Shown here one piece after another: positions 18,214 through 58,314 of a DNA stretch of 64,000 bases (position 1 is its first letter; each line of letters begins with the position of its first letter). The DNA is taken from positions 2,966,501-3,030,500 of the forward strand of contig NC_088787.1 in assembly GCF_949628265.1 (NCBI RefSeq). Reading direction: 5' to 3'. This stretch comes from Cloeon dipterum. Its lineage: Eukaryota > Arthropoda > Insecta > Ephemeroptera > Baetidae. The notes under the pieces were generated by a model, which was given only the letters and a program-made list of their open reading frames with translations, was not told where the DNA came from and ran no database searches. Made by a program: the position numbers and the translations under genes.

Positions 18214-18395
18214 TCAAGTGCGCATGCGCGGTTGGCAGCTAGCGGTGGCATTTAAGGAGAAGCAGCCAGAGTACAAAAAGAGGGGAAGGAGTGGGGACAA
18301 ACGACGCTTGGCTGCTGGGTGAATGACCCACTGCTTCCCCTCTTTTGCTGACTCTGTCTGCTGCTTCGCTTCTCCTACTCTCGTCAGTCTTTAAC
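18214..18395 (+). promoter_or_regulatory. Promoter of a decayed or unidentified gene
   Basis: GTGCGCATGCGCGG near 18219-18232 matches the palindromic NRF-1 (Ewg in insects) site typical of housekeeping promoters. About 160 bp further on, CGTCAGTCT (TCAGT at 18384-18388) fits the arthropod initiator, 55 bp before a start codon at 18443. No TATA box seen. Function not tested. Confidence 0.4.
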
Positions 18396-18550
18396 TGGCA
18401 GTGACGGCAGGAGGACGTGCGCGGAGCTGGTCTGTAGCCGTGATGGAGGGGCCAGCGAGCAGCGAGGCGGCCAGCGACCACCAGGTGACCATTGAGGACC
18501 ACGGCCACATTAAGGGTGAGTCCAAATTCTTTTTTCATTCCTTTCTCAGC

Positions 18551-19590
18551 AGGGTCATGCCCGCCTGTGTTTTCGACGCTTGTGGGTGTGGCCCTGCTTT
18601 TTCCTTTTCCATTAATTTTCTCTTTTTAATTCAATTTCCCCTTTTCTACTTAATTTCCAGCAGGGTCGTGCCCGCCTGTGTTTTTGACGCTTGTGGGTGT
18701 GGCCCTGCTTTTTCCTTTTCCATTAATTTTCTCTTTTTAATTCAATTTCCCCTTTTCTACTTAATTTCCAGCAGGGTCGTGCCCGCCTGTGTTTTTGACG
18801 CTTGTGGGTGTGGCCCTGCTTTTTCCTTTTCCATTAATTTTCTCTTTTTAATTCAATTTCCCCTTTTCTACTTAATTTCCAGCAGGGTCGTGCCCGCCTG
18901 TGTTTTTGACGCTTGTGGGTGTGGCCCTGCTTTTTCCTTTTCCATTAATTTTCTCTTTTTAATTCAATTTCCCCTTTTCTACTTAATTTCCAGCAGGGTC
19001 GTGCCCGCCTGTGTTTTTGACGCTTGTGGGTGTGGCCCTGCTTTTTCCTTTTCCATTAATTTTCTCTTTTTAATTCAATTTCCCCTTTTCTACTTAATTT
19101 CCAGCAGGGTCATGCCCGCCTGTGTTTTTGACGCTTGTGGGTGTGGCCCTGCTTTTTCCTTTTCCATTAATTTTCTCTTTTTAATTCAATTTCCCCTTTT
19201 CTACTTAATTTCCAGCAGGGTCGTGCCCGCCTGTGTTTTTGACGCTTGTGGGTGTGGCCCTGCTTTTTCCTTTTCCATTAATTTTCTCTTTTTAATTCAA
19301 TTTCCCCTTTTCTACTTAATTTCCAGCAGGGTCGTGCCCGCCTGTGTTTTTGACGCTTGTGGGTGTGGCCCTGCTTTTTCCTTTTCCATTAATTTTCTCT
19401 TTTTAATTCAATTTCCCCTTTTCTACTTAATTTCCAGCAGGGTCGTGCCCGCCTGTGTTTTTGACGCTTGTGGGTGTGGCCCTGCTTTTTCCTTTTCCAT
19501 TAATTTTCTCTTTTTAATTCAATTTCCCCTTTTCTACTTAATTTCCAGCAGGGTCGTGCCCGTCTGTGTTTTGGACGCTTGTGGGTGTGA
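18551..19590 (+). repeat. 111-bp minisatellite, nine units plus a partial
   Basis: Units begin at 18551, 18662, 18773, 18884, 18995, 19106, 19217, 19328 and 19439, with a diverged tenth at 19550. Units 2-9 are nearly identical. Each contains GCTTGTGGGTGTGGCCCTG, a long pyrimidine tract and TACTTAATTTCCAG, a good branch-point and 3' splice-site mimic. 111 is a multiple of three, so one frame stays open for 400 codons, but the translation (repeats of ACVFDACGCGPAFSFSINF) is hydrophobic and lies between a splice donor and acceptor. Best read as an intronic array, recently expanded or homogenised. Confidence 0.9.
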
Positions 19591-19612
19591 CCTTGCTGTT
19601 TCCTAATTCCCA

Positions 19613-26414: not shown

Positions 26415-26438
26415 CATTAGATAAGCTCACCTTCAACG

Positions 26439-28419
26439 ATGTCTCGATGTTGGATCATCTTGCTGTGGACAACTTGTGCAACGGCCCTGAACCTGAACCT
26501 CACCACCGTCTACGAATGGAATTCGACCAGCTTCGACTGGCCCTCCGAGAGAGACAAGGAATTCGCCCCGCCTGAACAAGGGATCAGGTACGATCCTCGT
26601 TTCATGGCCGTCTTCGGCTCCAGAGGCTGTTCCTCAGCCTGTTACCTTCCAGTCTGGTCTGGCTGCCAATCAACTCGACATCGACGTCTCCGAAATTCAA
26701 TCCCATGCCGTCCTGGGAAATGCAGGTTGGCCGCAAATCAACGAAGAATTAACAATTATCTGACATTATATCCAGGTTTCAGGCGACTGCGAGGCCATGC
26801 AAGCAGTTCGTGGTCTGCAAGTGGACACCGTTGGACGCCTGTGGGTGCTGGACGACGGAAGGACTTCGACGGAGTGTCCACCGAAGCTGTGGATTTTCGA
26901 TCTGAACAAAAACGACTCCGTAGTACTCGTGTACGCGTTCCCCCGTGACTTTTATTACTATAAGAGTGAACGTAATTATTATTCAAAAATAGTACTGTCC
27001 AGAATACAGGTTAATTTTGATCTTAAATAAGGTGGTAAGCTACACGACCTGGTGCTGGATCGGACAAAAACTGACTGGCTCGCCTACATCGCAAGTCCTA
27101 ACGCCCGAAACCTCGTCGTCTTCAGTTTCAAAAGAAACGCATCTTGGGTAGTCAAGTCCAGTGTTGTTTTTTGGAGACAAATTTCTGGCGTCGCCATTTC
27201 TCCAGGAACCAGGGCAAGACTTTACTTCTTCCAGTTTAATTCCAAGGAGCTCTTCTCCGTTTCTGTACGTGATCTCAGAGCTCGGAAGGAAGATCCGGCC
27301 GTCAGGTTGGAATTCTCGGGAACTTCTATCAGTAGGATGGTTATGGACGCCGAAGGAGTGCTGTACTTCGACCTTGGAGTCAGGAAATCGCTTTTTAAAT
27401 GGAATACGAGCAGCCCCTTTAAAGAGGAAAGACTCCTGAAGGTATTCTTCCTTTTTATCTTTATCTCAGCACTTTTATTATTAATCATTTTTATTAGGAT
27501 GTGTTGCTGGTTCGAGACATACCGTTCACTTTCACCTTGGACGAGCAGGGAAATTTCTGGATTACGAAGCAGTACGAAAATAAGAAGCCACGGTACAAAC
27601 TGCTGAAGGCTGATGTCGGAGCAAAATCTTATTTGTACGACGCCATAACAGGTGAAATTTAATTTCCTCTTTAAGACCGTCTTTAACGAAGTTTCTGAGC
27701 TCACCAATCGATTCTTGAGGATCAAATTAGGTAGAATGGATATTTTTCCGACCAAAATGTCCAGCGCGACGTGCGAACCTGCTTTTTCCCGCCAAAACAA
27801 TATGAACTTATATTCGAGAAGTGCGCATGCGTGAGAGCTGGTTTGAGCACTTGCAGTGAGACCACCTGTACGAATGTCTCCTTTGTCAGATCAAACCAGC
27901 TTTGACGCATGCGCGCGCTCACAACATTCAGGTTTTGGCGGGAAGAAAGGTTTGCACGTCGCACTGCACTTTACGCTCGGAAAAATATAATTTACCTCAA
28001 GAATCGATTGGTGAACTCAGAAAATCCGTCAAAGATGGTCTAAATATTGCAAGAATGGAACACTTTTCTAACAGAGAACTCAGCCGCTTAGATTTAAAAT
28101 TCAAATTGCTTGAAGTAGGAACAATAATTAGTAAAATTTTTATCATATTTCAGATTGTAGTTCCAGCAACGAAACCTGCGATTCCTCAGAAATGGAAAAG
28201 GACGATTCTCCAACCTTCAGCTGGAACTTTGAAATTTCCCCCGAAGGAAAGACGATTTTTATTATCTTATTGATATGTTTAAACGTCGCCATCGCTGTTT
28301 CACTTGGAACTGTTATTTACTGTTTGCTGCAGAAGTTAAAAAAATTGCAAGACTCATTCAAAGAGGCCATGGCCAGACCCAAGGAATTCAAGGGTCTGCT
28401 AGCTGTGAACTCAACTTGA
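26439..28419 (+). CDS. Yellow/MRJP-family membrane protein Y5, one frameshift
   Basis: Exons 26439-26725, 26776-26971, 27032-27441, 27498-27651 and 28154-28419. MSRCWIILLWTTCATA is a signal peptide; LTTVYEWNSTSFDWPSE, GRLWVLDDG, KLWIFDLNKND, LVLDRTKTDWLAYIA and IPFTFTLDEQGNFWI are Yellow landmarks. Near 26619-26626 the frame of exon 1 shifts, so the block RLFLSLLPSSLVWLPIN is read only in another frame: a young pseudogenising change or an assembly error. A 60-bp intron (26972-27031) is unique to this copy. After the linker comes a transmembrane helix (IFIILLICLNVAIAVSLGTV) and a short basic tail that lacks the tyrosine motifs of Y1, Y2, Y3 and Y6. R1 elements sit just upstream and in the last intron. 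Confidence 0.8.
27672..28042. mobile_element. MITE family R1, copy in Y5 last intron
   Basis: Ends AAGACCGTCTTTAACGAAGT and CTCAGAAAATCCGTCAAAGA, with the GGCGGGAA / TTCCCGCC inner pair and a central GTGCGCATGCGTGAGAGCTG. Full-length. Confidence 0.85.
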
Positions 28420-30761: not shown

Positions 30762-33700
30762 ATGGAAGAAATAAAAAGGATTGTTGAAGAAGGTAAGGAC
30801 CCTGACAGGGCCGGACTAGCTTCCCTGGACCTATTTTTTCCGTTTCATGCCACGAATATATCACTTAAAAAATTAAATTGAACTTCTTGCACGTTGAATT
30901 CAGTGTTTTTCACATTAAATGCAAAATTTAAATTCTTCTAGACCCTTTCCACCCCCAAAGGCGCTCGCTTCCTTGACGCCCTTTTAATTTCCCATTCATT
31001 CATGCACGACCTTTTGGAAGTAATTAAGTGATATTCACTCATTATTTACAATTTCAGGGGAGAAAATGCCTGAGAGGCCGGCCAATTTAGGGTATTTCGT
31101 GTCCCAAGACCAAACTAGAACAAACGCAGACAAGTATAAACATCGTGGAAATTATCCGATGTATATTTAATTAAAGAAATAAATTTCAGTGTTTGCGTGC
31201 TGGTCGTCCACTACAACTTTGAAAATGCCAAAAACAAAAACTTGCATCGGAAAGGTGATGCTCAGGACGTAAAGAACCTGGAAAGAACCTTCAGAGTGAA
31301 CCGGAACTGCAACTTCCGCAGTATTTTGTCACCGGAAAAAGGGCAGTTGCTCCAACTTCTCGCCAATCAGGAAGAGCTATTACGATTATTCGGCTCTTCA
31401 GGTAAAACGAATAATTTTATCTTTTTTTTATTTACCTTTATCAATTTTACAGAAGTTCCGTCCGTATTTGTGCTTTACATTCTTTCTCACGGCTACAGAG
31501 ACGGAATAATCTTCACAGACCACTACCAGAACGAAGACCCAAATGACTTAATTTACTTCACAACAGCGGAGATATTCGATTCTCTGAAAAAGCTGACTGG
31601 TTTCGAGGATTGTCTAAAATTATTAAACTTTGGTGTAAGTCTCTGCTAAATATCACCAAGACTTGCAATAAAAAAATGTTTATTTAGCCATGCAGAGGGG
31701 AACTAGGAGACGAAGTTTTTGTTGCAAACAACAAAATTGTCCCTTTCAAGAACGAAAATTCCTGCCGAATCACCTACAGCCCTCTGATGAGGAACACGGT
31801 TGTGTTCTTCTCAACGGTTGAAAGTATGTCATTTGTCAATATATTATTATATTCTACTCTAAATTTAAATAATTTCACAGCAACCAGGGCTAAACGAAAC
31901 CAGTCAGGAACAACTTTCACCTTCCTTACGTGCCAGGTCTTAAATTCGCTTGAGCAGGACGAGAGTCTCATAAATGTCCTGGCAAATATTCAAAATGAGA
32001 GTCACAAAAATGTGGACTTCGTGGAAAAAAAATACACTGGACAGACTCCAGAAGTGAAGATGTTTTCCCAGGACAGAAGTTTTTTCTTCTCAAAGTGAGT
32101 TTTTAACAGAATTTCCTTAGTGTTCATACATTTCAATGCCTGATATGCTTTCTAATTGTGTGATAAAATTTGTGTTTCAGAAGTCCTTCAATCTACTCGG
32201 CTCCCTCGACATCTGACGCAATGGGCATAAAAAATAAAAAGAAACGCGAGTTTTACTCTTGGAAATCGAGCTCAGGAGTTAACTTGCGACACCGCATTGC
32301 GTTCCTATTTTCCGCAGAACCAAATGAGCAGTTGAAAGAAATTAAAAGGGCCTTGTCCCAAAACCTAGACTTTGAAACCAGCGAAAGGATGCTCAGTGGA
32401 AAGCCTTGGGCGTCTATTAATGAAGGTTTTATTACTGATTTTATTGAATTGCCGGAAATTATGCAATTCATATTTCAGCCTCGAGGCTTGACTCCGACAT
32501 TGGCTGCGTTTTCCTATTTCTGTTTGGCCGTCTGATTGAAAACAAGGACATGAAAGAGGTTTGCGTGCAAGTGGACAGCAGAGAAACTGCGGTATCAGAA
32601 ATACTGCGCGAGTTCATCGGGCCGAAAAATGACCAGTGGATTGGAAAACCAAAAATATTATTTCTTGTGAACCTGGAAACGAGCTCATTTGACTACGTAA
32701 GTGCGATTGGCATTAAGTTAATTTCGAAATAATTCCAAAATGTCTAAAATATGTAAGAAACTCAATATGTCTTTTTCCTAAAGGAAATTCCATTGAGACC
32801 GAAAATGGAAATATCAGCAACAAACCACAGTGGATGGCTAGTCCTAGTTCTCCACAACAAAGGTATATATATTTAAACTCCTCTAGATTTTTTAATTAGT
32901 TTATATTTTTCATCTAAATAGAAGAACTTCAAAAGCTGATCGAAATCTTCAAGGGGCAAGAGCTGAAAAAGGAGAAAAGTCTGCAAGAACTGCTCGCAAG
33001 TCTGCTAATTTCCGATTCAATAGAAAGTAGGGATTTGCTTAACTCGACGCTCCAATATCTTCTCAATTTCCCCGACTGGCCTAGGTCTTTTGTTAAACTT
33101 AACTTTTCAGTGAAATATTCTCAACAATCTCAAAAAAAGAACTTCAGCTTTGACAGCTTGATCAAGGATTCAGCAACAAAAAAACAAACTTGGCTCTTGA
33201 GTTCCGATGCAGGATCAGGAAAGACGACAATTCTCAGGGAAATGGCTTTTCAGCTCGGGAAACTTCATCCAGAATTAAAAATTTTACGCGTTTCTCTCCC
33301 AAAAGTTTCGTTCAGCACTCTAAAGCGAAATTTTACTGACATTGAATTTCTCGTAAAAGCCACTCACAATTCGCACGAAGAAATCACCAAGAGCATAGAA
33401 AACAAGCAATGTGTTGTGTTTCTTGATGGGTTTGATGAAACTGAAAACCAAGAAATAATTCTGAAAGTTATCGACGCTTTAGAAAAGAAGCAGATATCGG
33501 TATGGGTTGGAACGAGACCTCACGCAGCAGAAGCAATCCAAAAGTGGGTAACAAATGCTGTTTTAGTAAAGATTGAACCCTTGAACCAAGAGCAGCAAAT
33601 CGAGTTGCTTCAGCAAGAGACGGGCATGCGTAAAGGCGATTGTGAAGAATTCATAGCGAACTTTACATCAAAGGACATCTTGGAAAATCCTCTGCACCTC

Positions 33701-36700
33701 TCTTTGGTTGCTAAGTACGGAGCAGAAGGAAATTTGTACCAAATCTACGACCAGGTCGTGCGACACAAAGTCGAAGACTCTCTGATCAGGGAAGGATATG
33801 ACAAAAACAACGTAAACACATTTCAAAGGAAATTAAACAAAGCTTTGGAAAGTCTTCAACAGATAGCAAGTTGCCACATCAGAGGAGTTGAAATAATAGG
33901 TGAAAATTCAAAAGACCTTGTAAAAATCAACTGTTATGGCATTGCCACGTTTGAAAATAACAGGGTTGATTTCATTCATCAGACTTTCGCAGAATTTCTT
34001 GCTGCCCAGTATTTCCTACGAGTAATCGAGGATGGTGATGATTTCCAAACCACCAACCAAGATGCTGCAAATTTGTTTCTTGGGGAATGGTTTTCTTGGT
34101 GTAGAAAGTTTGTCGATCTGTTCTATTCCACGGTGTTGACTGACGAGGCCAAAATTGAGGAGCACAGAGCATCAATTCTTCCAATCGTGAAGTTGAATCC
34201 AGATAGATTTATGGAATTGATTGCTCGCAATGGCTGCACAAATATTTTCACAATGATTGAGCCAGTTATTACCTTCGGTAATAACCAAGAGGGTAATTGT
34301 ATTTCTGTTGTAAGGGATAAGGCTCTTCTGGTCAAAGCAATGGATGGTGAGGAGGAAATTGCTATGAAGCTGCTAGACAAGGACTTGATCAACAGTGACG
34401 ACGAGTTGCTAATATTGTTACCATACCTGTTGAAGTCAGTAGCAAGGTCAAACGCAACTCTCTTTTTTGAAAAGCTGAAGACAAAATATCCAAGATTGCC
34501 AGAGATGATCCGCTCTAGAAGATTATCTATAGACGCTGCAGTGATGGCAGCAAGAAATAATAGCGGTGAAATCCTTGATCTACTGCTACAAAGCGGTGTC
34601 GATGTAGACACCATTGATAAAAACGAGGGAAACACCCTATACTGTGCAATTTCAAAAGGAGCTATGAAGTGCGTGGAAATTTTGCTAAAGCATGGCGCGA
34701 AATTGGCAAAAGATGTGAGTGGCAACAGCTGGGACCCATTGATGGTGGCTGTTAAAGAAAATCAACTAGACCTAGTCAAATACTTCTTGGAAGAAAATAT
34801 CAGTGGGCTGCAACGCAACAAAGAAACTTTCGAAATCAATGAAGTAAAGACAGATTTGAATGCTCTTCAGTTTTCTATTCACAGAGGACACAAAGAAATC
34901 GCAAAATTTTTAATAGAAAAGAGCCCAAGCTTGAAAAATGTTGACAATGGCAAAGAAGGAAGTCTTCTACAAATTTCGGCAAAAAAAGGATATTTAGGAA
35001 CGTGTCAATGGCTTGTTGACGAAGCAGAGGTTGACGTGAATACCTTACGACCAAGTGGAGAATCAAAAGATTGGTCTTTTTGGGAAACCAAATACATGGA
35101 CCATCTCTTAATTCTGCAGAAGAGTGACATTAACAAAACAGACGAAAGAGGAAAAACTGCCCTTCATTGTTCTGCAGAGTATGGTTATCTTGAGAGTGTC
35201 CAAGATCTGATTCAATCTGGTGCAAACGTTCAAGCTCAAGACGATAATGGATGGAATGCTTTTCATTTTGCTTGCAAAAGTTCTAGTGACCATAAAGAAA
35301 AAATTATTCGACTGTTGCACGGCACGGATTGTCAGCTGGCTAAGGAGAAAACCAAAAGCGGTCAAACAGGGTTGCATATTCTTCTGAAATTCAGCTATTT
35401 CTCGGTTGAGAAAGTGCGTTTTCTGGTCGAAGAGATTGGAGTTGACGTGAAAGCAAAGGACAACAATGGCTGCAGTGCGTTGCAATTTGCACTTAGCAAA
35501 GGAATGGGTTGCGTTAACTATTTGATGAGAAAAGATATCAACCTGGAAGTAAAAAACAAATGGGGGCAAGCATGCCTGCATCTAGCCGCTGTAATGGGCG
35601 ATTTAGAGGCTCTGCAAACTTGGATAGATCTAGGTGGAGACTTGGATGTGGTAGACAACTACGGGCTGACTGCGTTGCATTATGCCGCTAATGAAGGACA
35701 TTTGCAATTTGTGAAGAAGCTTTTAGTGTTCGCGGCCAAGGAAGCCAAAAATCCAGATATCGGTGAAGGTTCTGCTGGATCCACCCAAAAAAAGAGAGTG
35801 AACAGATTTGACAACAGTGGAACAACAGCTCTGCACCTTGCTGTTAAATCAAAAAATGTTGATATGGTGAAAATGTTGCTTGAAAGCAACGCAGATTTAA
35901 CTCTAACGGGCATGGAAGGAAATAATGCTATCCACTACGCTATCAACAGCGAAAGAATGTTACGATTCATCCATGAGAAAAACGGATCTCTGCTAAAGCA
36001 GGCTTTAAAAAACGAAAGCACACTTCTACATCTGGCATTGCACCACAATTATGTACTGGAAGATAGCGATAAAATCTATAAGTGGATTGTAGAACAAGAA
36101 GACGACACCGATTTGAACGTAAAAAATGCTTCTGGCGATACACCACTCTTACACGCTTGCAAACATATGATCTGGAGTGTCGCCGAAATGCTGCTGACCA
36201 GAAATGTTGAGGTCAATGTCCAAGACACGGAAGGAAAAACTGCGATGCACTACGCCGCAGAGAAAGGAAAATTGAATTTAGTGAAGCTGATGCATGAGAA
36301 AGGTGCGAATTTTGCTCTAACAGACGACGATGGAATGAACACTTTGCACAGCGCAACGGGTTACTTCGAGATATTTATATTTCTTCACGAGAAAAACGAT
36401 GCCTTGTTGAAACAGCGTTTGAAAAACGGAGACACGACACTCCATTGTGCAATAAGGAGTTCCTACTGCACGAAATTAATAAAGTGGCTAATTGAACAAT
36501 GCCAAATTGACTTGAATTCGACAAATAGTGGGGGTGAGACACCCCTTCTGCTGGCTTGCACAATGAGAAGGTGGATGATTGCCAAAATGTTGTTGGAAAA
36601 AAGCGTCGATGTACACGTGAAAGATAAAATTGGAAAAACGGCCCTGCACTACGCCGTTAATTCCCACGATGGCCTAGAAGATTTACATGCTTTTGATGTG

Positions 36701-37180
36701 GTGCAAGAGTTGTGCAAAAGAGGCGCAGATTTGGCTTCGACGGACAACGACGGGAAGAACGCATTTCACCATGCGATGAAAAACTTCCACATGGCGTTAT
36801 TCATTCATGAATTGAATGGTGAATTAGTTAAACAGCGTCTGAACAATGGAGATACCACTCTGCATCTGGCAATCAAATCAGACCTATTAAACAGGAATCA
36901 AGCCTTAATTATGTGGCTTTTGGAGCAAGACTTCGTTGACTTGAACGCGAGAAACGCTTTGAATGAAACCCCGCTGATTCTGGCTTGTAAGGCGAGTCTG
37001 TACACTTGGAAAATTGTTGAAATACTACTGTCTCAAAACGTGGATGTCAACGTAAGAGACGATAATGGGAAATCTGCTCGGGATTTCGTAGAAGAATTTG
37101 TTGGAGGCGGTTTTCTTAAAAGGTTTGACGAAATTGTAGCGTCAAGAAACGCCAACAACGAAGTTGAGGACAGAAAATAA
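30762..37180 (+). CDS. Caspase-pseudocaspase-NACHT-ankyrin protein (NLR-like)
   Basis: Exons 30762-30792, 31058-31133, 31190-31401, 31453-31634, 31688-31823, 31881-32094, 32181-32425, 32479-32696, 32784-32862 and 32922-37180 keep one frame: 1883 residues. Residues about 35-285 form a caspase domain: VCVLVVHYNFENAK, His119 in YILSHG, Cys169 in PCRG, then a p10-like part ending GQTPEVKMFSQDRSFFFSK. Residues about 300-470 resemble a second caspase (DSDIGCVFLFLFG and WIGKPKILFLVNLE) with both catalytic residues replaced. A NACHT domain follows: AGSGKTT (Lys about 565), FLDGFDE (about 633), then GTRPH. About twenty ankyrin repeats fill residues 1005-1870. There is no CARD or death-domain leader. 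By family logic the ankyrins sense, NACHT oligomerises and the protease is the effector; this is inferred. The last exon is intronless for 4.2 kb. Confidence 0.9.
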
Positions 37181-38380
37181 GGGATTTCCGCTCTTATTTA
37201 AGTTTGAGAGTGCCAGATGAGCTAATATTCTCATTGTTTTTGTGGCGTTTTATGACATAGGATCATATTTTTACTTGATTTTCATTTTTGAATGCCTAAT
37301 TTGTATATAAATATTTAAATCACATTTGAGAAGTTTGAGTTTCGCAGAACTTTGTCCTCTATTTGAGAATTATATTATATATAGGGTGATAAATGTGAAA
37401 TATGCAGTATATAAATTTATGTTAGTTACTAAGAGATTTGTTTAATTTCTGTACTCCACTAACTGGCTATACAGCGAACGTACCATAAAGAAAAGCAATA
37501 ATGGTGTCCGCTGAAAGCATTTTAAAATAAAATATTAATATTTTGTAAAAAGACAACTGCATTTTACCCAAAAAATCCAAAAAATATAGCATTCTTATTA
37601 CGAATTCATGTATAGTATTATGTGTTATGAATCAAATTAGAATCATTATTATTGATTTTAGTTTTTTAACAATGAAACGTACAGCAATGTCGCTATCCTC
37701 ATTAATTAATCTTAAAATTAATTCAAATAATTATTTAAAACAATCCCTTGAAAGATAATCTAATTAATTTAATTTTTTAAATCATGACCGTTTCTTAATA
37801 ATTTCGAATATTATATCTTATTATTATTTTTAAAAGTAAAAATCTCCTGAAAATTAATTGCGTAAAGATAAAAAAGACTTCATTCTTCACTACAAGTCCA
37901 ACTTACCTATTTAAAATTGTGCCACGTGTCTCTTTTGAACTGAATCTTACTTCAAATAAATATGACATTCAGTCTTATTAAAAAAAGCTCCACTTGTAAA
38001 GCAAAAACAGCTGCTGCTTCCACACTCCCATCTAGTCGCACCTTTCTCAATCAACTACCCTGAACTACTTTTGAATTTCGATCCAGCAGCTGATTACAAG
38101 CGTGCAACAAAGAAGCTGTCTATGTTTCCACGCTCCCAGCTGCGGTCGCGGTCGAGCCTCCTCGATTGCCCTGAAGGTGGCAGGGAAGTGCGGCAGGCAA
38201 TCAGCTGTAACCACAAAAACACCGCTGGATGAAGCCGTGGGTGCATCGAGACGCGACAACTTGGCTTTTCTTGGAAAATAATTGTGTAACTTGGGTAATT
38301 TTAATCTTTAAACCCTTTTTAACGATTCATATTTAGTTTTTGGAATTAATAGTGTTAATCATCCTTTCCCAAGCAGCACA
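37181..38380. other. Spacer
   Basis: Very AT-rich 3' flank of the caspase-NACHT gene (AATAAAATATTAATA near 37527), then the promoter side of zinc-binding gene A. 38090-38210 (CAGCTGATTACAAGCG, CCTGAAGGTGGCAGGGAAG) resembles 46970-47040 upstream of gene B, so the promoters were duplicated together. Confidence 0.5.
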
Positions 38381-40068
38381 ATGGCGGAAAATTTTGACCC
38401 GATTCAGGACGTATTTGAGGTGTTAAATAAGCATTTCGATGCGCAGAAAAAAGCAGAGTCTGATTTCAAGAGAGCTGGGTGAGAGCTTGAAAATCCTTCA
38501 GCCTTTTTGTTCCTTTTTTAAATATTTTTTTCTTTAGTTTCGCCATGAATCTTAAAAAGCTTAGAAAGCCTGATTGTCGAGGAGAGACTTCAAATTCTTA
38601 TGGTTTGTATAAATTTATTTAATTATTCTGAGGTGTTATAAACACTTCTTTTTAAAATATATTGAAAATTGAAATACAGTCACGACTATATGTGATTTAA
38701 GTCTTTTAACTCTCTAGATGAAAATCGTTTTCAACCTGCCAGGATCAAGACAAAAAACTGCGACTTTTGTGGATACTCTCCTCCATCAGAAAACCAATTA
38801 GTCTTAATCTCCAAAGGCGTCCAGCCGAAAAAGGATTATTTGAGGATTTGTACCGAGTGCGTCACCAGAACAAAGTATTTAACCCCTTTTAATTGTGTTA
38901 AGAGAAATTTAAAAATTAAAATTCACAGGCAGACCCTGGAGGATTTCTGCGAAATGATGAACATTCCCAAGATGGAGGATTTGACAGATGAAGCTCGTCA
39001 GATAATTCGCGAAATATTTGGTAAGCCCTTTAAGCTTTAAGAGTTCGAAGCCGGCAAAAGATGGCGCCACCGAATACTTTTGTAATAAATTTAATTTTAT
39101 TGCACTTCAGCTGCGATTTTAAACTCAATCTAGCTACTGTGCATTCTTCACTTCATATACTTTCTTTTGACGTGCTGAAAACCAAAATCGGTTAAACCAA
39201 TCGCCGTAGAATCGTGAAAAACTATTTCTCGAATAAAAAATTATTTTCCAACGTTTCTGCGGTGAATGGCTTACCCGATTTTAGTTATAAGCACGTCAAA
39301 AGAAAGAATATTAAGTGAAGAATGAACAAGAGCAGGATTGAGTCTGAAATCGCAGCGGAAGTTCTTTAAAATTTAATTTATAACGAAAGTATACGGTGGC
39401 GCCATCTGTTGGCGGCTTCGGATACTTTAGGGTTTTATACATCTGTTGTATTTTGTGATTTTGAATTAACCGCATCAACTATTTTCAATTCCAGACAATG
39501 ATGATTGCGTAGGCATGTGGTTTGAGAGAGGAGAGTGCACCCTGTGCACCCTGGAGGGTAAAAACGTTTCCCTCAGCGTCCACGAGATGGAGGACCACGT
39601 GCTGGAGCATCACCGCGACACCTCGGCTGGCGGCAAGTGCGTGAAGGATTGCAACCTGCACTTCAGGACCTTGGAGGAAAGGGCCGATCACGAGCGCTAC
39701 TGCGGCGCGTGGTGCAGGGAGTGCGGCACTTGCTTCCTGAAGTGCGACGCCCACTTCAGGGACGTGCACCATGCTTACGTGTGTCCGGGCGTCGGGTGCG
39801 TGGGGACCTTCCGTTCCCTTCGCACTGCCTGCAAACACGTTTCCTGGTACCACCTTTGGAAGGTCGAGGTATTTTTTTTTCTCCAAATATTTTCCTGAAT
39901 GAAGAAATTAATTTTATTCTATTATTTTAGAAATCTGGTGATGGGCCAGCAGCCGCGCTGAGCCGAGCCAAACTTTTCTTAAGCCACCAGCCAGAATTTG
40001 CATCTTCATTTCATGTTTCATCATCAGTCGGGTGCGTTGGAACCTCCCATTCCCTTCGCACAGTCTGA
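38381..40068 (+). CDS. Zinc-binding protein A (Cys4 plus Cys/His fingers)
   Basis: Exons 38381-38478, 38538-38602, 38718-38874, 38929-39020, 39495-39868 and 39931-40068 share one frame, 307 residues. Residues about 60-105 hold a Cys4 module (NCDFCGYSP then ICTECVTRTK). The fifth exon holds a row of Cys/His pairs: CTLCTLEG, HEMEDHVLEHH, KDCNLHFRTLEERADHERYC, WCRECGTCFLKCDAHFRDVH and VCPGVGCVGTFRSLRTACKH, resembling degenerate C2H2 or TRAF-type fingers. Family not recognised. Gene B at 47133-49898 is a paralog. The last exon is odd: it derives from a tandem copy of the end of exon 5 and carries VGCVGTSHSLRTV just before the stop. Intron 4 is almost entirely an R3 element. Confidence 0.75.
39030..39440. 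mobile_element. Repeat family R3, complete inverted-repeat copy
   Basis: Arms of about 190 bp: left GATGGCGCCACCGAATACTT, GACGTGCTGAAAACCAAAAT; right inverted GCACGTCAAA, GAGTCTGAAATCGCAGCGGA, GGCGCCATCTGTTGGCGGC. This copy shows R3 to be a fold-back (MITE-like) element. It occupies most of intron 4 of zinc-binding gene A. Confidence 0.85.
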
Positions 40069-42525: not shown

Positions 42526-45069
42526 TCACGGCAAGATTTTCAGACATTGCAGAGACTCGGAAGTAGTAGCGTCTTCGCCACCTGGTGACCTGGAAGGTGC
42601 CGGTGCAACGTATTCGCACAGAGGTTCCTGTTGACCAGGGCCGCTGTCGTTGTTATTCTCAACTGTATCACGAGAAGCCTCTCCAGGTTTCTTGGAAGTT
42701 CTCGGCGTCGCTTTCCTTCTTCCTGCCGATCGCGGGCTGATGATGAGAAGTATAGCAGAAGGGGGCGTGGCAATGGCCTGGACGTCATCGACCACCCTGT
42801 ACTGCCCTTCAATGGCGCCGTTGTCACGGAAAATGGACGTTTTCTGGGCTTCGCTGGTGTTTTGCAAAGGGGTGTTTTCTCTCTTCACTTTAAGTAGCAG
42901 AAAAATCATGAAACCCAACATGACGACGGTGCAGTAGGTCGTCATGATAATGATAAACTTTTGGTCAGATTTTGTTCTGGTCGGAATACGAATATGCGAG
43001 TGGGATCGTCCTGTAATGGTAAAAGAAGCACCGGTTAGTTAGTTCTTTTAGGAAATGGAATAAGTGGTGATTGAACAATTAATCGCCATGATGTCGTTCA
43101 TTCTTGCTCCAACCGTCATTAATTCAAAGTGGAATGAGCCAAACTTTAGCAATATTTTTTTTTAATTAAAAATAAACAAATAAGGACTGCTATTCCCCCA
43201 CGACGTTTTGATAAAACCAAGAGAACTAAAATAGAATATTAACTAATTACTGGTTTAGTTTTCAGCCTAAAAATTTAGAAATCCACTTGAAAATTTGAAA
43301 ATTAAACCAACGTTTCAGTATTAGCTGTCAATTCTTTAAAAATATACTCACAGAATAAGAGCCATTATAATTATTGCATAATTATTATTAATAAATTGAG
43401 ATTAACGACAATGTGAAATTTTACAGAGGGGATTACTTACTTCGCGATTCCTCGACGATGTACGAATCTGCACTGACTGCAGCCTTCAAGAGCGTGTATT
43501 TTGGCTGTATTTCATCAACAACCACCATCCAAATGGTTCCATTCTGATCCAATACAAAAGTAAACGGCCATCTTCCAAATGATTCATTCAGTGCAGGCTC
43601 CTAAAACCAAGCAATGCACTGATTTTAAATTCGTTACAAAATTATTCTATATATACTTTGTATTCATGGCTAAAATTAAAGTTAAACTACTTTATTTCAT
43701 ATTTGAGAAATTCTGCAAGTATTTTTTAATCAACGCATTAACAAAATTCACTAAATGCTCCGCACCACCAAATATAAATTTAATATTCATCTCGATTTTC
43801 AAAAATAATAGTAGAATAGCAAAGGGGCCAGTTTCAAATAAAAAACTTCGGCAGCTACAAAGGCATATTCGCGGTCCATCCACCTCAAAAAAAGAGACGC
43901 GCGTGCTCCCAAGGCTGAACACTCAAAATCGCGGAATATTTATCATTTTGAACCTCCACATTGAAAAGTTGACAAAATAGTTAACGACTAGTTCACTAAA
44001 ATCGAGATTGATTTCTATTCTCAAATGTATTTTAAGTGAATTGGTGACCAAGTTACCTCATGAAAACGCTGCTGCACAAATGACTGAGAAGTGTTCAATA
44101 AGGAAGCGTAACTCTTAAACAGAAAGGCAGCATACGAGTTCCCGTGGTTGTCCATCAGCATTCTATTCGAATTTTCTGCAGTCCATTTTCCAGTTAGCTC
44201 CGGATTTGCAATTCCGTTGCGAAGGGTGGCAACGGAAAATGAATACAGATATCTATAGCCGGTTCTGGTGAGGTAGAGCTCTCTCGGTTCCTCATTCTTA
44301 GGGGACAGGGCAATGAACAAAACTTTGATTCCTTGCGTGTCCACAATCCAAGATGCATTTCTCTCCAAACTAAACACGACAATGTTTTCGTGATACCACC
44401 GCGAGATGAAGGCCAAGGTTTCGTTGGGCGTTTCGTCAAGAACCAAGTCATGCGTCAATATTTGAAAAGGAAATCGATGAAGGAGTTCAATGTGATTGTT
44501 GGACAAGTTGAAAATCCATAGTTTGGAATTGCAATTGTCACTACCACTGTCCAGTACCCACAGCCTGCCAACAGAGTCCACTTCCATCCCTGTTGCTTCT
44601 TCAATTTTGTCGCAGTTTCCGTATTCCTGCAAAAAAAGTAATTGAATTTTGACACAAGTACAAGACTACCAATTGAATTAAATAATAATTCCGAGCACTT
44701 TTTACTCCCATTAAAATATTCATCGAATTTAATTTATGTTTTGCTACTTACATGCATGTGCCACGAAGGGAATGGAGTGAGCTTTGGGGGTGCAGAGGAC
44801 GCGCTGCTCGTCGGCAAAGACACCAGAGTAACCGGAGTGTTATTGTATTTTGTAAGGCCGAGGAAAATCCTTGTTCCGTTAACTGCCATGTTTATAGGTT
44901 TTAAATTCTCTGGTTCGAAAGTTCCATCTTCCAAAGCCTCTGTCCTGCTGGCCTCCGACGGCCACTCGTAGTCCAATTCATTCCACTCGAAGACTTGAGT
45001 GAAGTTGGCTGCTACTGTGGCCAGAGATGATACGCCGAGGAGGGAAATGGCGCACAGGATTGGAGTCAT
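42526..45069 (-). CDS. Yellow/MRJP-family membrane protein Y6
   Basis: Minus-strand exons 45069-44752, 44626-44057, 43600-43441 and 43010-42526 (phases 0, 0, 1), 510 residues, intact. MTPILCAISLLGVSSLATVA is a signal peptide; FTQVFEWNELDYEWPSE, GRLWVLDSG, KLWIFNLSNN and WPFTFVLDQNGTIWMVV are family landmarks. The start at 45069 matches that of Y2 (both MTP). A basic linker leads to a transmembrane helix at about residues 368-390 (TTYCTVVMLGFMIFLLLKVK) and a tail of about 120 residues containing GQYRVVDD and CEYVAPAP; YVAP fits the Crk-type YxxP motif. It is the only intact plus-less (reverse-strand) member, set between the two zinc-binding genes. Probably a surface protein. Confidence 0.93.
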
Positions 45070-45689
45070 GCTTCTATCCTTTCCTGCCCAACTGTTCACA
45101 AAAAGCACAGAGATTAATAATAAAAGCGACTCTATTTTGACAAATTTCGGAGCAGGACGAACAACCAATGATCTTGTTTGCTGTACAGTCCACTTACCTT
45201 CTCATTGACTAACTAAGGGCCCCTTTGAGGCCTTTAACACTGAAAATACTAACGGAAAACCCCAAACACTTGTGTTTGTTTACAACCTGAGCGGCCTGTC
45301 CAGGATGCGTCGCACGCGGCCATCGGTGTGGGGATGCGGAAAGGAGCTTAGGACTCTAGTCGGCTATTGGTCGTCTAAGTACTTCACCCCGTTTCCTGCA
45401 GCTCGCATCTGCTCGCTCCTCCCGCACCTGAGCTGGCTGCGGAGCCGTTTTTGATTGGTCAGCTAAGGGTTTGCCTCCCTACGCGTTTTTTTCAAGTGAG
45501 AGGCGCGAAAGCCACGAGGGCGGCAGCAGGTCAACATTAAAATTAACCTGCTATATTTTTTATATAGATCGAAAACTCTACTATAACTAATCATAGCCAA
45601 TATAAAGTACAATCAATTAAAGAGAGACTAAATATGCATCGAGCATGTGAACTGATTAAGTGATTGGCCAATTTTTTGAGTCACCGACG

Positions 45690-47132: not shown

Positions 47133-49898
47133 ATGCCGTTTTACTGCACCTGTTACCACGAGGATCCTGATCTTGTGAGACGCAATTTGGTGTGCCCAAA
47201 TCCAAATTGCACGTTACTGATGTAAAAAAATCTTTAATTGAATTTTCACAATTTTTGAATTGAAAATTAATTTTTAGAAGGCAGGCTCCGCAAGGCCCGC
47301 GTTTTCACCGACCTGCTCAACAAGGTAAAATCAGGTTTTCTTTACATTAGATCGAGATTTAGAATATTAATTAATTTTTCCTTGCGCAGCACTGCCCTAT
47401 GCCAACCCGGCCTATAACCAGGATAATGGAAATCAAAATTATCCGGCTTTTCCGAGAAATGTTCCAGGTATTTTTTATTTCTAACATTGCTTGAATATTT
47501 TATAAAAGGCGCATTTTTCAGTTCCCCCGAGACACATCCAGCCTGGAATGTTCCTTGTACCTGAAGTTCCTGCAGCCCCACAGAATTTTAATCCTTGTGG
47601 TAGGTCGAAATTTTTTCTCCTGTTGTGTTCAAAGCCGCCAACAGATGGCGCCACCGTATACTTTAGTAATTTATTTAATTTCAAGTCACTTTCACACAGG
47701 GTTCCGAAAAAATCGGGAATTTTACTTTTTGTCTAATATCAGGGTTTTTTACCTGACGATGTTCCGATTAATATTATTCGTACCGATGTCATCAATCCAA
47801 AGGGGACAGGCGAGGTATAGAGTCAGGTGAGAAAGCACTCCTCAAGGGGAAGAGCTCTCGTTCACACTTTAGCCTGGTCAGTTTAAACCAGGTGGGGAAA
47901 ATTCGGAACCTTGTTCGTTGCAATTTCAGACTTACAATTAATCCTGCCACTGTGAATTCCTCACTTCATATCCGTTCTTTCGACGTGCTGAAAACCAAAA
48001 TCGGTCCAGCCATTCCCTCACTCATATCCGTGAGCGAGCTAAGAAGTTCAGCATCCTCTGGCAGGTGGCAGGTCGATAGCTTTTTCAGCCAATCAGAGGA
48101 CGTCTCAGAGTTTCTTGCCTGTTATGCCCGCGTGAAGAAGGAGCGAGGAGTAGAAGGGCGTAAGCGGTGTTTTTCGTGGGCGTAACAGGCAACAAACTCC
48201 GATACGGCCTCTGATTGGCTGAAAAAGCTATCGACCTGCCACCTGCCAGTGAATGCTGAACTTCTTAGTTAGCTTGCTCACGGACGCTCCATATATGAGT
48301 GAGCTGAGCCATTCGCCGCAGGGCGTAGAAACGTTGGAAAAGATTTTATATTTCTAAAAATAGTTTTCACCATTTTACGGCGATTGGCTCAACTGATTTT
48401 GGTTTTCAGCACGTCTAAAGAAAACATTTTAAATGAAAAAAACCACAGTGGCAGGATTGAGTTTGAAATTGCAGCGAAATGACCTTATAATTAAATATAC
48501 GGTGGCGCCATCTGTGAGCAGCATCTAAAACTAGGAGCTCATTCAAAGAACCTAATGAAATTGGTCTTTCAGCTCCTCCTGCCCCTCGTCGTGTGCGTGC
48601 ACTTTATAATGTAGAGCCTGGCCGACCACCTGCACTCATGGTCGGACAAAATCGTCAGCAGATGAACCGGCCTGCTGCTCGCCCGGAATTCCAAATTCCG
48701 CCTCCTGGGTTCGGGTACATAGCGCCAATAATGAGTGAAAACTATAGCTTTAACGCATCACGTTGCTCTTGGTGCAAATTGAAGTTTGGCGTTCTCACTT
48801 TCGAGAGGCTCACCCTTCAAAATAATAGGGCCGACGTTTGCGAGCTGTGCCTTGCGAGAACACAGTATGATATATTTAAAAAATATTTAATTTCCAATCC
48901 TAATCCTTGATTTATTTTTCCAGGATGACAATGGAAAGAATTTTCGGACGCATCGAATTCGATAATAATCGTAACAATAATTTCAGAAACATATTCGATT
49001 TCACAGGTTTGTAAACTATCCTATTTAAAGTTTGATGATGGTAAATTTACCCGAAATATCCTTTGATACACATGCGGATTAAGAACAGTAAAAAATGTAC
49101 ATACATTTTCGAGAAAATCGGCCTCAAAGTTAGCATTGTTTTTAACGGAGAATCTTAAAGTAATTTTGCAATCATGATTTTCAATGAAATTCCGCATTTT
49201 CCCAAAGAAAGACTCTCGCTGTCGGATAGATTTCGATCAGAGGATTCCAAATCATGTGAGAAAACATGGTCAAGCCATGGGAATTTCGGAGAAAACGGGA
49301 ATTTCTCACCCCGGAAGCAATTCCTTTGCTTAACAAAGACGGCGTAACCGGTAAAATTCGAATAAAATGGATTTTCGGGCAATTTCGGTAGAATATGAAG
49401 AACATTGGTCGATCATGGTTAAATTTTCATTTTAAAATCATTTTGTAAAATGAAAAAAATCCACTACATTCCACTTTAAGGAATTAATTCAACTTTAAAA
49501 AATTATTTCCATTTTCAGAGACAGGCAGAGTTCTTGGATACATGAATGACATGGTCCAATGCAACCACTGCCCGAAAAAAATACCGAGAGAAGAAATAGT
49601 TCCTCACGTAATTGACATTCACAACGGCGGTGCCTTTTACAAATGTCCTCGTAACTGCGAAAACTACTTCAGAAATGATCAGATATTGCAGCACTCCGAA
49701 CAATGCGTGCGCCAGTGTATCATCTGTGTCGCCAATGGAAATTTGAATGCGCCACTAAATCTCATTAGTCACATCAAAGCAGAACACTGGCAGTACGCTA
49801 TTTGTGGCATCACCGGCTGCGACGGAGTTTCCACCGAGCCTGATAGAATGTTCAATCACATGATGGAAAATCATGTCTGGAGACTTCAGCATGTCTAA
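47133..49898 (+). CDS. Zinc-binding protein B, paralog of A
   Basis: Exons 47133-47221, 47278-47324, 47390-47467, 47522-47599, 48573-48864, 48924-49006 and 49519-49898 keep one frame, 348 residues. It begins MPFYCTCYHEDPDLVRRNLV then CPNPNC (a small Cys-rich knot), has a Pro/Asn-rich middle (PPRHIQPGMFLVPEVPAAP), then a Cys4 module (CSWCKLKF then CELCLARTQ) matching that of protein A. The last exon carries Cys/His fingers: CNHCPKKIPREEIVPHVIDI, CPRNCENYFRNDQILQHSEQ, CIICVANG and CGITGCDGVSTEPDRMFNH, ending ENHVWRLQHV (compare VSWYHLWKVE in A). No named family recognised; TRAF-type or C2H2-like fingers suggest nucleic-acid or protein binding. Intron 4 contains an R3 element with another transposon nested in it. 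Confidence 0.75.
47625..48540. mobile_element. Repeat family R3 copy interrupted by another element
   Basis: Left end GCCGCCAACAGATGGCGCC near 47633, right end GGTGGCGCCATCTGTGAGCA near 48501, inner arms with CGACGTGCTGAAAACCAAAA and GATTTTGGTTTTCAGCACGT. The left half is split by unrelated sequence and the inner part by the nested element at 48016-48306. It lies in intron 4 of gene B. Confidence 0.75.
48016..48306. mobile_element. hAT-like MITE nested in R3
   Basis: Fold-back element with arms CTCACTCATATCCGTGAGCG / its diverged complement, and a strong inner palindrome (GATAGCTTTTTCAGCCAATC and complement). Flanked by the 8-bp direct repeat AGCCATTC at 48008-48015 and 48307-48314; the uninterrupted R3 sequence elsewhere reads CAGCCATTCGCCG, so the duplication is certain. 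An 8-bp duplication fits the hAT superfamily. Confidence 0.8.
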
Positions 49899-54651: not shown

Positions 54652-55869
<1,218 letters not shown>

Positions 55870-55977
55870 TATATGTTTAATTGAAAGGTTAAATAAAATC
55901 TTTTTTAATCGCTTTCCTAATTTTCATGAACAGAAATGGATAATTTCCCCTCCATAAATAACAAGTGAACGAGATGT

Positions 55978-56092
55978 AAACGTTTTTCCCGCCAAAACAA
56001 TACATATGCGACAAGTGCGCATGCGTTAGAGCTGGTTTGAGCACTTGCACAGAGACCACCTGTAGGAATGACTTCTTTGTCAAATCCGGTAT
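55978..56092. mobile_element. MITE family R1, inner left part
   Basis: CCCGCCAAAACAATACATAT, GTGCGCATGCGTTAGAGCTG and GACTTCTTTGTCAAATCC follow the R1 order; both ends are missing. Confidence 0.65.
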
Positions 56093-56339
56093 TTGATATT
56101 ATGCCAAATAAATATTTCCATATGGAAACTATGTAATTATGAGATGATTTCTCAATAATGTTGCGAGAAAGAAGGAAATAAACGAGAATTCGAAAAAATA
56201 CCCTAAATTCTCTCAACTCTGGCCGACAATTCCTATAAAGCACAAAGCCTTTCTTCTCGCGGTGGGTTCTACGACCGCCAGCTGCAGCAAAATCAGAGAT
56301 TCCTTGAGCAAATATCCAAAAAAATGTCTATGCTTAAAG

Positions 56340-56775
56340 TAGGGAAAGCCAAATTTAAACCCGCGCAACTTAACAAGACAATTCGACTTTATTGAATTAC
56401 TCTAAACAAGAGATATAACGCGGATCACTCGAATTCCGCTTCGACGCCTCAAACCGCAATCACTCGCTTCCTTCTGGACCATAAAACCCCACGTCGCTCC
56501 GCCACTGCCGAAACCGGCAGAAATTAGCAGCAGCCTGACTGCTCACTCGCCGACATCTTAAAGTCCACGGCACGGCCCTGCGACGGAAGTCCTCGGCGTT
56601 GCCCACGAGCCCTCCAAAAGTGATCTCCTACCTTGTCTAATTACGCTGTCCGACTTCGGCTCGTTTAACTCGTGGACTTCGCTTCTCCTCGTTCCGTCCT
56701 TGTTCGGGTTCTTATACGGTCCTTTCTCCTCCTGCGTCTAGCTCCTCCTCGTTCTCCACGTTGTCACAACACCTA
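56340..56775 (-). mobile_element. Probable solo LTR fossil
   Basis: On the minus strand, begins TGTTGTGACAACGTGG, has a TATA-like CCGTATAAGAACCC about 60 bp in, GC-rich middle sequence and an AATAAA signal (TTCAATAAAGTCG) near the far end. This order (TG start, TATA, polyadenylation signal) is that of a retroelement long terminal repeat. No internal gag-pol region is seen on either side, so it looks like a solo LTR, probably of the gypsy/Ty3 type by general form. The far boundary and target duplication are not clear. Age cannot be judged from one copy. Confidence 0.45.
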
Positions 56776-58314
56776 ATGTGCTGATAAAAATGTTTGTAGG
56801 ATGCCAGTTAATTTTGGAAAAATTAACAAAATTTATTCATTCAAAAAAATCTGCGTCAGAATTAAACTAATCTTTAATTATGACTCAAATTGCTCTAAAC
56901 CAAAGGTCACTAAGGTTCTTCCCTGCCCTTCAAGAAAAATAGACTAAGTTAGGAATATCGCAAAAAATGACACACGGAATTTAATGGAATTAAGGTCGCT
57001 GATTATTATTATTAACCGGAAAAACAACAATCTTTATGAAAATCAGAACAATAGAAATTTGGCGTGTTGTTGAGTGTTTGTCTGTTGTTTTTCAATCGAG
57101 CGAATTCACATTAAAAAAAATGGAAGTTGTTAGTGGGGAAATTACAAATATAGAAATACAACAAAGAAAGAGATATCGACGCGCAACACTAAAAGGAGTA
57201 CTTATCACAGCCTCTTCTCGGGTGTTGGCGCGGGGCCGCTCCGTCTATGTAGCTGCCGCTCGTATAGAAAGAAATCCGCAAAGTTGTCGATGCTGCCGCT
57301 CTCTCCAGGCTGGTGTGTCCACCGGGTGACCATGGGTTCGGCAAAGGTCACGGCGCGCGGGTGACGTGTGCGCGCGGCCGCCGATATGACGCCTCGGTTG
57401 GGCTCCGCGTGGACGAGGGACTCCTGACAGGGACTGGCCACGAGGGACACCTACAGGGTGGTGGACGAGGGAACATCAGAATGGCTCTTTGAAATAATTG
57501 TGGTGCCCGAAGCAACCACTGGCGGAAGCCCAAAAGGAGAATCCCAAAAGTTGGAAAAGCAAATGTTTACTTACAATTCCTGACTTAGGAGTGAATTAAA
57601 CGTCGAATCCGAAATCTTATGATTTCGTTGTCTACAATGAGAGACGCACCCTGCTCAGGTGACGTGCGCTCTCGTCGGTGATTTTGGGCCATCTGATTTA
57701 TTGTTCCCTGACCTACCGTGGGTTAACTCAGGCTAACCCCCCTGCGGCACCTATCGAAGGTGGAGAAATTGGGAGGGCGAAGCAGCTGGTCGCTGTGCAG
57801 TCGCACTCGTGCTGCACACAAGTTCGCTTTTGCACAGTTTTTCACATGATCACTTCACTCGCACAAATACAAAAAAACAAGCAATAATCAAAGAAGAGAG
57901 GGAAAGATAGGAAAGATATTTTTACAAAAATAAAAATAAATCAGTCATTTTACACAATTTACGTGTTTGCCAATTTCGCTATTGCCTTTATTACAAGTGA
58001 TTGTAACAACGTTAACCCCTTCCTGTGCCTGTCGTCTTTTGAGAGGGTAGTTTTCTGCCTCCCCTAATAAAAGAATTAAGTTATCCCCTAGCACCTTCAT
58101 CCCCCACCTCCTTAAAGCGCCCCTGCCCTTGCATCACACCAATAACTCAAACACAGTTTCCTCGTATTTAAATAAGTTGCCAAGAGACTATTAATAAACC
58201 ATTACATAGAAAGTTTCCACCAACCTTTTAATTTCCTACTAGAAACCTGCTCAATTGCCCATTAAATATCAGTCAAGTCTAAATCACTTTAGCTGCGGCA
58301 CTTGAAGCTCAAAC
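56776..58314. other. Spacer between T2 and T3
   Basis: 56900-57200 is AT-rich. 57205-57530 is GC-rich, with open stretches on both strands but no recognisable motif. 57600-57900 likewise. 58135-58314 is the duplicated upstream flank of the protease genes (TTTCCTCGTATTTAAATAAG, GCCAAGAGACTATTAAT, ATATCAGTCAAGTCTAAATC). Confidence 0.45.

What the first reader, a model, noticed from the sequence alone, without database searches (positions are those of the whole stretch)
30762..37180. Caspase joined to NACHT and ankyrin repeats in one insect gene
Spliced exons give a single 1883-residue protein: caspase p20/p10, second caspase-like part, NACHT and about twenty ankyrins. Direct fusion of a caspase-type protease to a STAND switch is familiar from bacterial and fungal defence proteins; animal NLRs usually recruit caspases through adaptor domains, and insects generally lack NACHT receptors. 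A self-contained sensor-switch-protease would be a one-protein inflammasome-like system.
Basis: partly seen in the sequence, partly recalled or inferred. Interest (0 to 1): 0.93.

Follow-up and report, generated by a model that had tools for sequence, protein, structure and literature searches.

The report
Caspase–NACHT–ankyrin fusion gene in arthropod
One intact arthropod (probably insect) gene appears to join a caspase protease, a poorly conserved middle part, a NACHT molecular switch and a long ankyrin-repeat arm in one protein, which could act as a self-contained cell-death receptor.

Summary
Ten exons with canonical GT–AG introns (51–265 nt) splice into one open frame of 1883 residues. 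Pfam finds a caspase domain (Peptidase_C14, E 1.5e-9), a NACHT NTPase (E 2.5e-8) and 14 to 18 ankyrin stretches, depending on the model, above curated cut-offs. The caspase keeps catalytic His119 and Cys169; the NACHT keeps Walker A and B. The 'second caspase-like part' has no Pfam match. Only its second half resembles a caspase, without the active-site Cys; its first half is weakly closer to a death-effector domain. Neither match is significant by database standards. Fusion is well supported: the first Met of the NACHT exon lies after its P-loop, and only 86 nt separate the caspase from the next exon. No transcript was available. Caspase–NACHT fusions are described in bacteria, receptor–caspase fusions in amphioxus, pseudo/active double caspases in coral. 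Ten literature searches listed no animal caspase–NACHT–ankyrin protein that I recognised. The likeliest mechanism is a one-chain, proximity-activated cell-death receptor: ankyrins sense, NACHT oligomerises, the caspase fires. That is inferred, not shown.

The parts
30762..30792 (+). Exon 1: possible start codon and 10 residues
   Evidence: Open frame plus donor GTAAGG. Weakest exon; a Met in exon 2 (MPERPAN) is an alternative start.
31058..31133 (+). Exon 2: short N-terminal leader
   Evidence: Phases match; donor at 31134 gives a 56-nt intron and 1883 aa
31190..32094 (+). Exons 3-6 (31190-31401, 31453-31634, 31688-31823, 31881-32094): caspase domain D1, p20 and p10; catalytic His119 codon 31488-31490, Cys169 codon 31691-31693
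   Evidence: Peptidase_C14 aa 37-254, E 1.5e-9, 38.3 bits against cut-off 21.4; p20 alignment to caspases
32181..32862 (+). Exons 7-9 (32181-32425, 32479-32696, 32784-32862): linker with a possible STSD/A autocleavage site (aa 293-297) and unresolved region D2 (about aa 313-464): first half weakly DED-like, second half weakly caspase-like without the active-site Cys
   Evidence: No Pfam match above cut-off; phmmer best PDB hits caspase-8, E 0.27-0.89, and PEA-15, E 0.43-0.65, PEA-15 and mS34 for the first half alone; shuffle tests
32922..37180 (+). Exon 10: uninterrupted block with NACHT and ankyrin repeats, ending in the stop codon
   Evidence: ORF; acceptor TAAATAG before 32922; first in-frame Met only at 33242, after the P-loop
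33194..33616 (+). NACHT NTPase core: Walker A GSGKTT (aa 562, from 33212), Walker B FLDGFDE (aa 631), GTRP (aa 661)
   Evidence: Pfam NACHT E 2.5e-8, 34.4 bits against cut-off 26.7; motif positions
33617..34003 (+). Probable helical / winged-helix part after NACHT, with NPLHLSL (aa 720) and FIHQTFAEFLA (aa 815)
   Evidence: Motif positions; the assignment rests on recalled NLR motifs, and the fold attempt was uninformative
34500..37110 (+). Ankyrin-repeat array (approximate limits)
   Evidence: Pfam Ank_2 E 2e-117, 14 stretches; Ank 15; Ank_4 18
37526..37531 (+). First AATAAA after the stop codon, candidate poly(A) signal
   Evidence: Pattern scan

Best explanation
The gene encodes one NLR-like (STAND) receptor in which the protease itself sits where an adaptor domain is usual: caspase - unresolved middle part - NACHT - ankyrin repeats. 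Shown by sequence: an intact gene model, a caspase domain with its catalytic dyad, and a NACHT with nucleotide-binding motifs. Inferred: at rest the ankyrin arm and the nucleotide-bound NACHT hold the protein closed. A ligand, or loss of a guarded partner, lets the NACHT oligomerise. This brings the caspase domains together so that they activate by proximity, possibly releasing themselves at a linker aspartate (STSD/A, aa 293-297), to start cell death or an inflammatory-type response. The middle part may be a c-FLIP-like pseudo-caspase partner or brake, or a DED-like assembly module.
For: Single open frame over ten exons, 1883 aa. Peptidase_C14 E 1.5e-9; NACHT E 2.5e-8 and ankyrins. The alignment places His of SHG, Cys of GPCRG and the Arg of LHRKG on the caspase positions (the S1-pocket role of the Arg is recalled). 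Walker A/B, GTRP and FIHQTFAEFLA are present. Fusion: the first Met of exon 10 follows the P-loop, the exon 6-exon 7 gap is 86 nt, and no AATAAA or ATTAAA lies between 31667 and 32233. Codon usage of exons 1-9 fits exon 10 in frame only. Precedents: bacterial metacaspase-NACHT-WD40 (PMC3501461); amphioxus LRR-caspase and TNFR-caspase genes (PMC2575513); coral caspase-X, in which a pseudo-caspase restrains an active one in cis (PMC4715348).
Against: No transcript or protein evidence. No homologue was found; none of those collections is of insect genomes. The Gln-Ala of the QACRG motif is Gly-Pro here. Similarity of the caspase to solved caspases is weak by phmmer (best E 0.09). phmmer of the NACHT segment against the PDB found no NLR (only CTP synthase, E 0.54). 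The middle part is unresolved. Activation, cell death and ligand are untested.
Confidence: 0.6

Rival explanations
1. Two genes side by side: a short stand-alone caspase (exons 1-6) and a separate middle part-NACHT-ankyrin gene starting at a Met in exons 7-9.
For: Methionines exist in exons 7, 8 and 9 (translation); no transcript data.
Against: Only 86 nt between exon 6 and exon 7, with a canonical donor and acceptor in matching phase; no AATAAA or ATTAAA between 31667 and 32233; the NACHT exon has no Met before its P-loop.
Confidence: 0.1
2. The caspase domain is catalytically weak or inactive, and the protein works as a scaffold or decoy rather than a protease.
For: GPCRG in place of QACRG; weak similarity to solved caspases.
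Against: Catalytic His and Cys and one conserved Arg are kept in an otherwise divergent domain, which suggests selection for activity; Drosophila Dronc also departs from QACRG (recalled).
Confidence: 0.2
3. The middle part (aa 313-464) is a divergent death-effector domain followed by a short caspase-like remnant, or a lineage-specific linker, rather than a whole pseudo-caspase.
For: No Pfam match above cut-off. First half: PEA-15 (a DED protein; identity of the domain recalled) is the best PDB hit, E 0.18, tied with ribosomal mS34 at 0.18-0.25; PEA-15 model 14.6 bits, 0 of 5000 shuffles as high, while the caspase models give -1.7 bits (1666 of 5000) and -0.2 bits (823 of 5000). Caspase-4 fragment model: -0.7 bits, 2565 of 5000 shuffles as high. 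Model with D1 included: 30 of 5000.
Against: Second half: caspase-8 model 15.7 bits, 0 of 5000; ancestral caspase-3/6/7 model, not picked from a hit of this region, 9.1 bits, 1 of 5000. Pfam reports no DED. PEA-15 and caspase-8 models were both picked after the hit.
Confidence: 0.5

Closest known systems
Bacterial metacaspase-NACHT-WD40 proteins (PMC3501461, passages seen)
   Same: Caspase-fold protease and NACHT with a repeat sensor in one chain
   Different: Here a metazoan-type caspase in a spliced animal gene, ankyrins instead of WD40, plus a middle part; no bacterial relative of the NACHT segment found in genome contigs or plasmids
Vertebrate NLR inflammasome sensors with caspase-1
   Same: NACHT switch between an N-terminal signalling part and C-terminal repeats, expected to control a caspase
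   Different: Protease is in cis, no CARD or pyrin found by Pfam, ankyrins instead of LRR
Amphioxus LRR-caspase and TNFR-caspase 'direct connection' genes, and DED-NACHT genes (PMC2575513, passages seen)
   Same: Animal receptor domains fused directly to a caspase, bypassing adaptors
   Different: The passages seen do not report caspase-NACHT
Acropora caspase-X double caspases (PMC4715348, section 11 read)
   Same: If the middle part is a pseudo-caspase: an inactive and an active caspase in one chain
   Different: There the order is inactive then active, here active first; section 11 reports no NACHT or ankyrin (two predictions have a glycosyl-transferase domain)
Apaf-1/Dark/CED-4 apoptosomes (largely recalled)
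   Same: STAND oligomerisation to activate a caspase
   Different: NB-ARC rather than NACHT, caspase recruited through CARD

Membership tests
Caspase (Peptidase_C14) | Significant profile match over p20 and p10 | tested here: met
   E 1.5e-9, 38.3 bits against cut-off 21.4, profile positions 3-212 of 233
Caspase (Peptidase_C14) | Catalytic His and Cys | tested here: met
   SHG (His119) and GPCRG (Cys169) align with the caspase dyad
Caspase (Peptidase_C14) | QACxG pentapeptide | tested here: not met
   GPCRG instead; natural variation at the first two positions is recalled
Caspase (Peptidase_C14) | Proteolysis after aspartate | not testable with these tools
   Needs enzyme assay
NACHT STAND NTPase | NACHT profile match | tested here: met
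   E 2.5e-8, 34.4 bits against cut-off 26.7
NACHT STAND NTPase | Walker A and Walker B | tested here: met
   GSGKTT aa 562, FLDGFDE aa 631
NLR-like tripartite receptor | C-terminal repeat sensor | tested here: met
   14-18 ankyrin stretches
Classical animal NLR | N-terminal CARD, pyrin, DED, Death or BIR and C-terminal LRR | tested here: not met
   None reported by Pfam in aa 1-477 or exon 10; weak DED-like signal in the middle part
Inflammasome | Ligand-induced oligomer that activates a caspase | not testable with these tools
   Needs biochemistry
Pseudo-caspase (c-FLIP-like), middle part | Whole caspase fold without catalytic residues | tested here: inconclusive
   No Pfam match; caspase-like signal only in the second half
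Death-effector domain, first half of middle part | DED profile match | tested here: inconclusive
   No Pfam DED; PEA-15 E 0.18 and 0 of 5000 shuffles, picked after the hit

The most novel reading that the evidence does not exclude
A complete inflammasome-like circuit in one animal polypeptide: an ankyrin sensor, a NACHT oligomerisation switch, an active caspase and its own c-FLIP-like regulator (pseudo-caspase, perhaps with a death-effector-like half) in cis, converging on bacterial caspase-NACHT architecture in an arthropod.
Probability: 0.25. Interest if true: 0.85.

Novelty: new variant of a known kind. Interest (0 to 1): 0.62.

Why it matters
Animal NLRs are thought to reach caspases through adaptor domains. 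A direct fusion would show that the adaptor step can be dispensed with in animals, give insects a testable NLR–caspase pathway, and offer a one-protein system for studying proximity activation of caspases.

Tried and rejected
My first gene model with a 29-nt intron 2 (1892 aa) was dropped for the 56-nt intron and 1883 aa. Searches used the 1892-aa model or parts of it; the difference is nine residues just before the caspase core.

Structure prediction of the contiguous NACHT segment (528 aa, single sequence) gave mean pLDDT 38.8, so no fold search was run. Searches for relatives found none: caspase part in viral contigs; NACHT segment in genome contigs, plasmids, phages and viral contigs. These are viral, bacterial, archaeal and plasmid collections, so the absence says little about insects. 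phmmer of the NACHT segment against the PDB gave only a CTP synthase at E 0.54. MAFFT of D1 against D2 alone was not informative; BLASTP of the two p10-like regions gave E 0.043 in a two-sequence comparison, 23% identity over 43 residues, which I did not count as evidence.

Hits of the ankyrin array to bacterial ankyrin effectors, MzaA and a TRP channel model lie below the NCBIfam cut-offs and were read as shared repeats; PADLOC hits (no cut-offs given) were read the same way. The partial NACHT hit to the antiphage EruA model (47.2 bits against a cut-off of 1000) was read as shared NACHT; no paper of the 8 listed (of 17) holds the word EruA. No paralogue was seen elsewhere in the window (tblastn at E 0.01, no row outside the gene region). 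My first reading of the whole middle part as a pseudo-caspase was weakened, and the odds of the novel case were lowered from 0.3 to 0.25 and of its rival raised from 0.35 to 0.5.

Full report
What is there. The window carries, on the + strand between 30762 and 37180, a ten-exon gene. The exons are 30762–30792, 31058–31133, 31190–31401, 31453–31634, 31688–31823, 31881–32094, 32181–32425, 32479–32696, 32784–32862 and 32922–37180; the introns are 265, 56, 51, 53, 57, 86, 53, 87 and 59 nt, and the frame is open for 1883 residues. Codon usage trained on exon 10 scores exons 1–9 at +0.06 per codon in frame against -0.29 and -0.22 in the other frames, and the introns at -0.44 to -0.53 (1892-aa model).

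Domains. Pfam finds Peptidase_C14 at aa 37–254 (E 1.5e-9, 38.3 bits, cut-off 21.4), NACHT in exon 10 (E 2.5e-8, 34.4 bits, cut-off 26.7) and ankyrin repeats (Ank_2 E 2e-117, 14 stretches; Ank 15; Ank_4 18). No CARD, DED, Death or pyrin domain was reported for aa 1–477. The alignment of the p20 part with three caspase sequences puts SHG (His119) and GPCRG (Cys169) on the catalytic positions and the Arg of LHRKG on a conserved Arg; its role in the S1 pocket is recalled. The stretch TRAKRNQSG resembles by eye the p10 motif with the second S1 Arg; this was not tested. By phmmer the domain is far from solved caspases: caspase-4 E 0.09 and 0.14, ancestral caspase E 0.12. The NACHT keeps GSGKTT, FLDGFDE, GTRP, NPLHLSL and FIHQTFAEFLA; reading the last two as helical-domain motifs is recalled.

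The middle part. Residues 313–464 have no Pfam match above cut-off. phmmer of aa 285–526 against the PDB gives 17 hits at E up to 10: 10 caspase-8 chains (E 0.27–0.89), 3 PEA-15 (0.43–0.65) and 4 mS34 (1.7–1.8). The caspase-8 match covers the second half, KPKILFLVNLETS against KPKVFFIQACQGD or KPKVFFIQAAQGD, so the Cys position is not Cys. The PEA-15 match covers the first half. With the first half alone the 11 hits are PEA-15 (5, best E 0.18), mS34 (5, best 0.18) and MARK1 (1). Shuffle tests, each with 5000 shuffles, on the whole part: caspase-8 model 15.1 bits, 0 as high; ancestral caspase-3/6/7 8.4 bits, 2 as high; ancestral plus caspase-4 6.6 bits, 3 as high; caspase-4 fragment -0.7 bits, 2565 as high; three caspases together 12.7 bits, 0 as high; the same with D1 added 3.5 bits, 30 as high. 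A repeat gave 0, 1, 4, 2520 and 0 for the first five. Of 127 windows cut from the rest of the protein, 104 to 114 were reported per model; none scored as high for the first three models and 86 of 107 did for caspase-4. Split in halves, the first half scores 14.6 bits with PEA-15 (0 of 5000) but -1.7 and -0.2 with the caspase-8 and ancestral models (1666 and 823 of 5000); the second half scores 15.7 and 9.1 bits with those caspase models (0 and 1 of 5000) but 1.4 with PEA-15 (453 of 5000). The caspase-8 and PEA-15 models were picked because they were hits, so their counts are flattering. I conclude that the second half probably derives from a caspase and is not catalytic, and that the first half may be a decayed caspase or a death-effector-like domain.

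One gene or two. In exon 10 the first in-frame Met (33242) lies after the P-loop (from 33212), so the NACHT cannot start inside that exon. The gap between the last caspase exon and exon 7 is 86 nt with canonical splice sites, and no AATAAA or ATTAAA occurs between 31667 and 32233. A separate gene starting at a Met in exons 7–9 is not strictly excluded. No transcript data were available.

Origin and surroundings. No genome is held for the window. Of ten neighbouring ORFs tested, four match MRJP/yellow, two match trypsin and four match nothing at E 0.001. This suggests an arthropod, probably an insect. No relatives were found among viral contigs, bacterial and archaeal genome contigs, plasmids or phages, so there is no sign of a recent bacterial donor, but these collections cannot show insect relatives. 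No second copy was seen in the window.

How it may work. By its parts this is an NLR-like receptor with a built-in protease: ankyrins sense, NACHT switches and oligomerises, and the caspase is activated by proximity. STSD/A in the linker (aa 293–297) is one possible release site among 22 Asp-Ala/Gly/Ser steps in the 1892-aa model. Coral caspase-X gives a precedent for a pseudo-caspase that restrains an active caspase in cis (PMC4715348, section 11 read). All of these steps are inferred for this protein.

Comparison. Caspase–NACHT fusions are published for bacteria: 15 sequences with NACHT in that survey, including metacaspase–NACHT–WD40 (PMC3501461, passages). Amphioxus has LRR–caspase, TNFR–caspase and DED–NACHT genes, and the same paper says NACHT is absent from Drosophila and C. 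elegans (PMC2575513, passages). Coral NACHT/NB-ARC proteins have CARD, DED or Death domains and repeats including ankyrin (PMC4083563, passages). A review and a survey describe fungal NLRs with N-terminal proteases including CHAT, of the caspase clade (PMC12881547, PMC9815663, passages); a third paper lists only peptidase S8 among the proteases in the passage seen (PMC4986451). Passages of PMC8195603 mention caspases among the effectors of bacterial STAND systems; passages of PMC2246300 and PMC11797021 showed no caspase–NACHT fusion. PMC5381652 notes caspases as a possible exception in family size in a damselfly (passage). The ten searches of the held library listed no paper that I recognised as reporting an insect or other animal caspase–NACHT–ankyrin protein; most papers were seen only as listings, several listings were capped, and subscription papers and database gene predictions are not covered. 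I therefore rate it a new variant of a known kind.

Noticed in passing
325-1761, 6002-7744, 9015-11848, 26421-28416 (+) and 44024-45201 (-): At least five MRJP/yellow-like genes; several are followed by an open hydrophobic stretch that looks like a C-terminal membrane anchor, unusual for this mostly secreted family (recalled). The caspase-NACHT gene lies among them. Four ORFs were tested by Pfam; the rest is by eye from ORFs.
   Followed up: partly
18395-19603: Tandem repeat that stays open in one frame with a near-identical repeated peptide of about 37 residues; probably non-coding satellite.
   Followed up: no
54750-61636: Cluster of trypsin-like serine protease genes (two ORFs matched by Pfam; a third by eye).
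   Followed up: partly
38696-39895 and 48518-49895: Two cysteine/histidine-rich gene regions that look alike by eye, possibly zinc-finger; Pfam found no family at E 0.001 for the three ORFs tested.
   Followed up: partly
33371-33742: Part of the NACHT region matches the NCBIfam model of the bacterial antiphage protein EruA (E 9.4e-13, 47.2 bits, far below its cut-off of 1000).
   Followed up: partly
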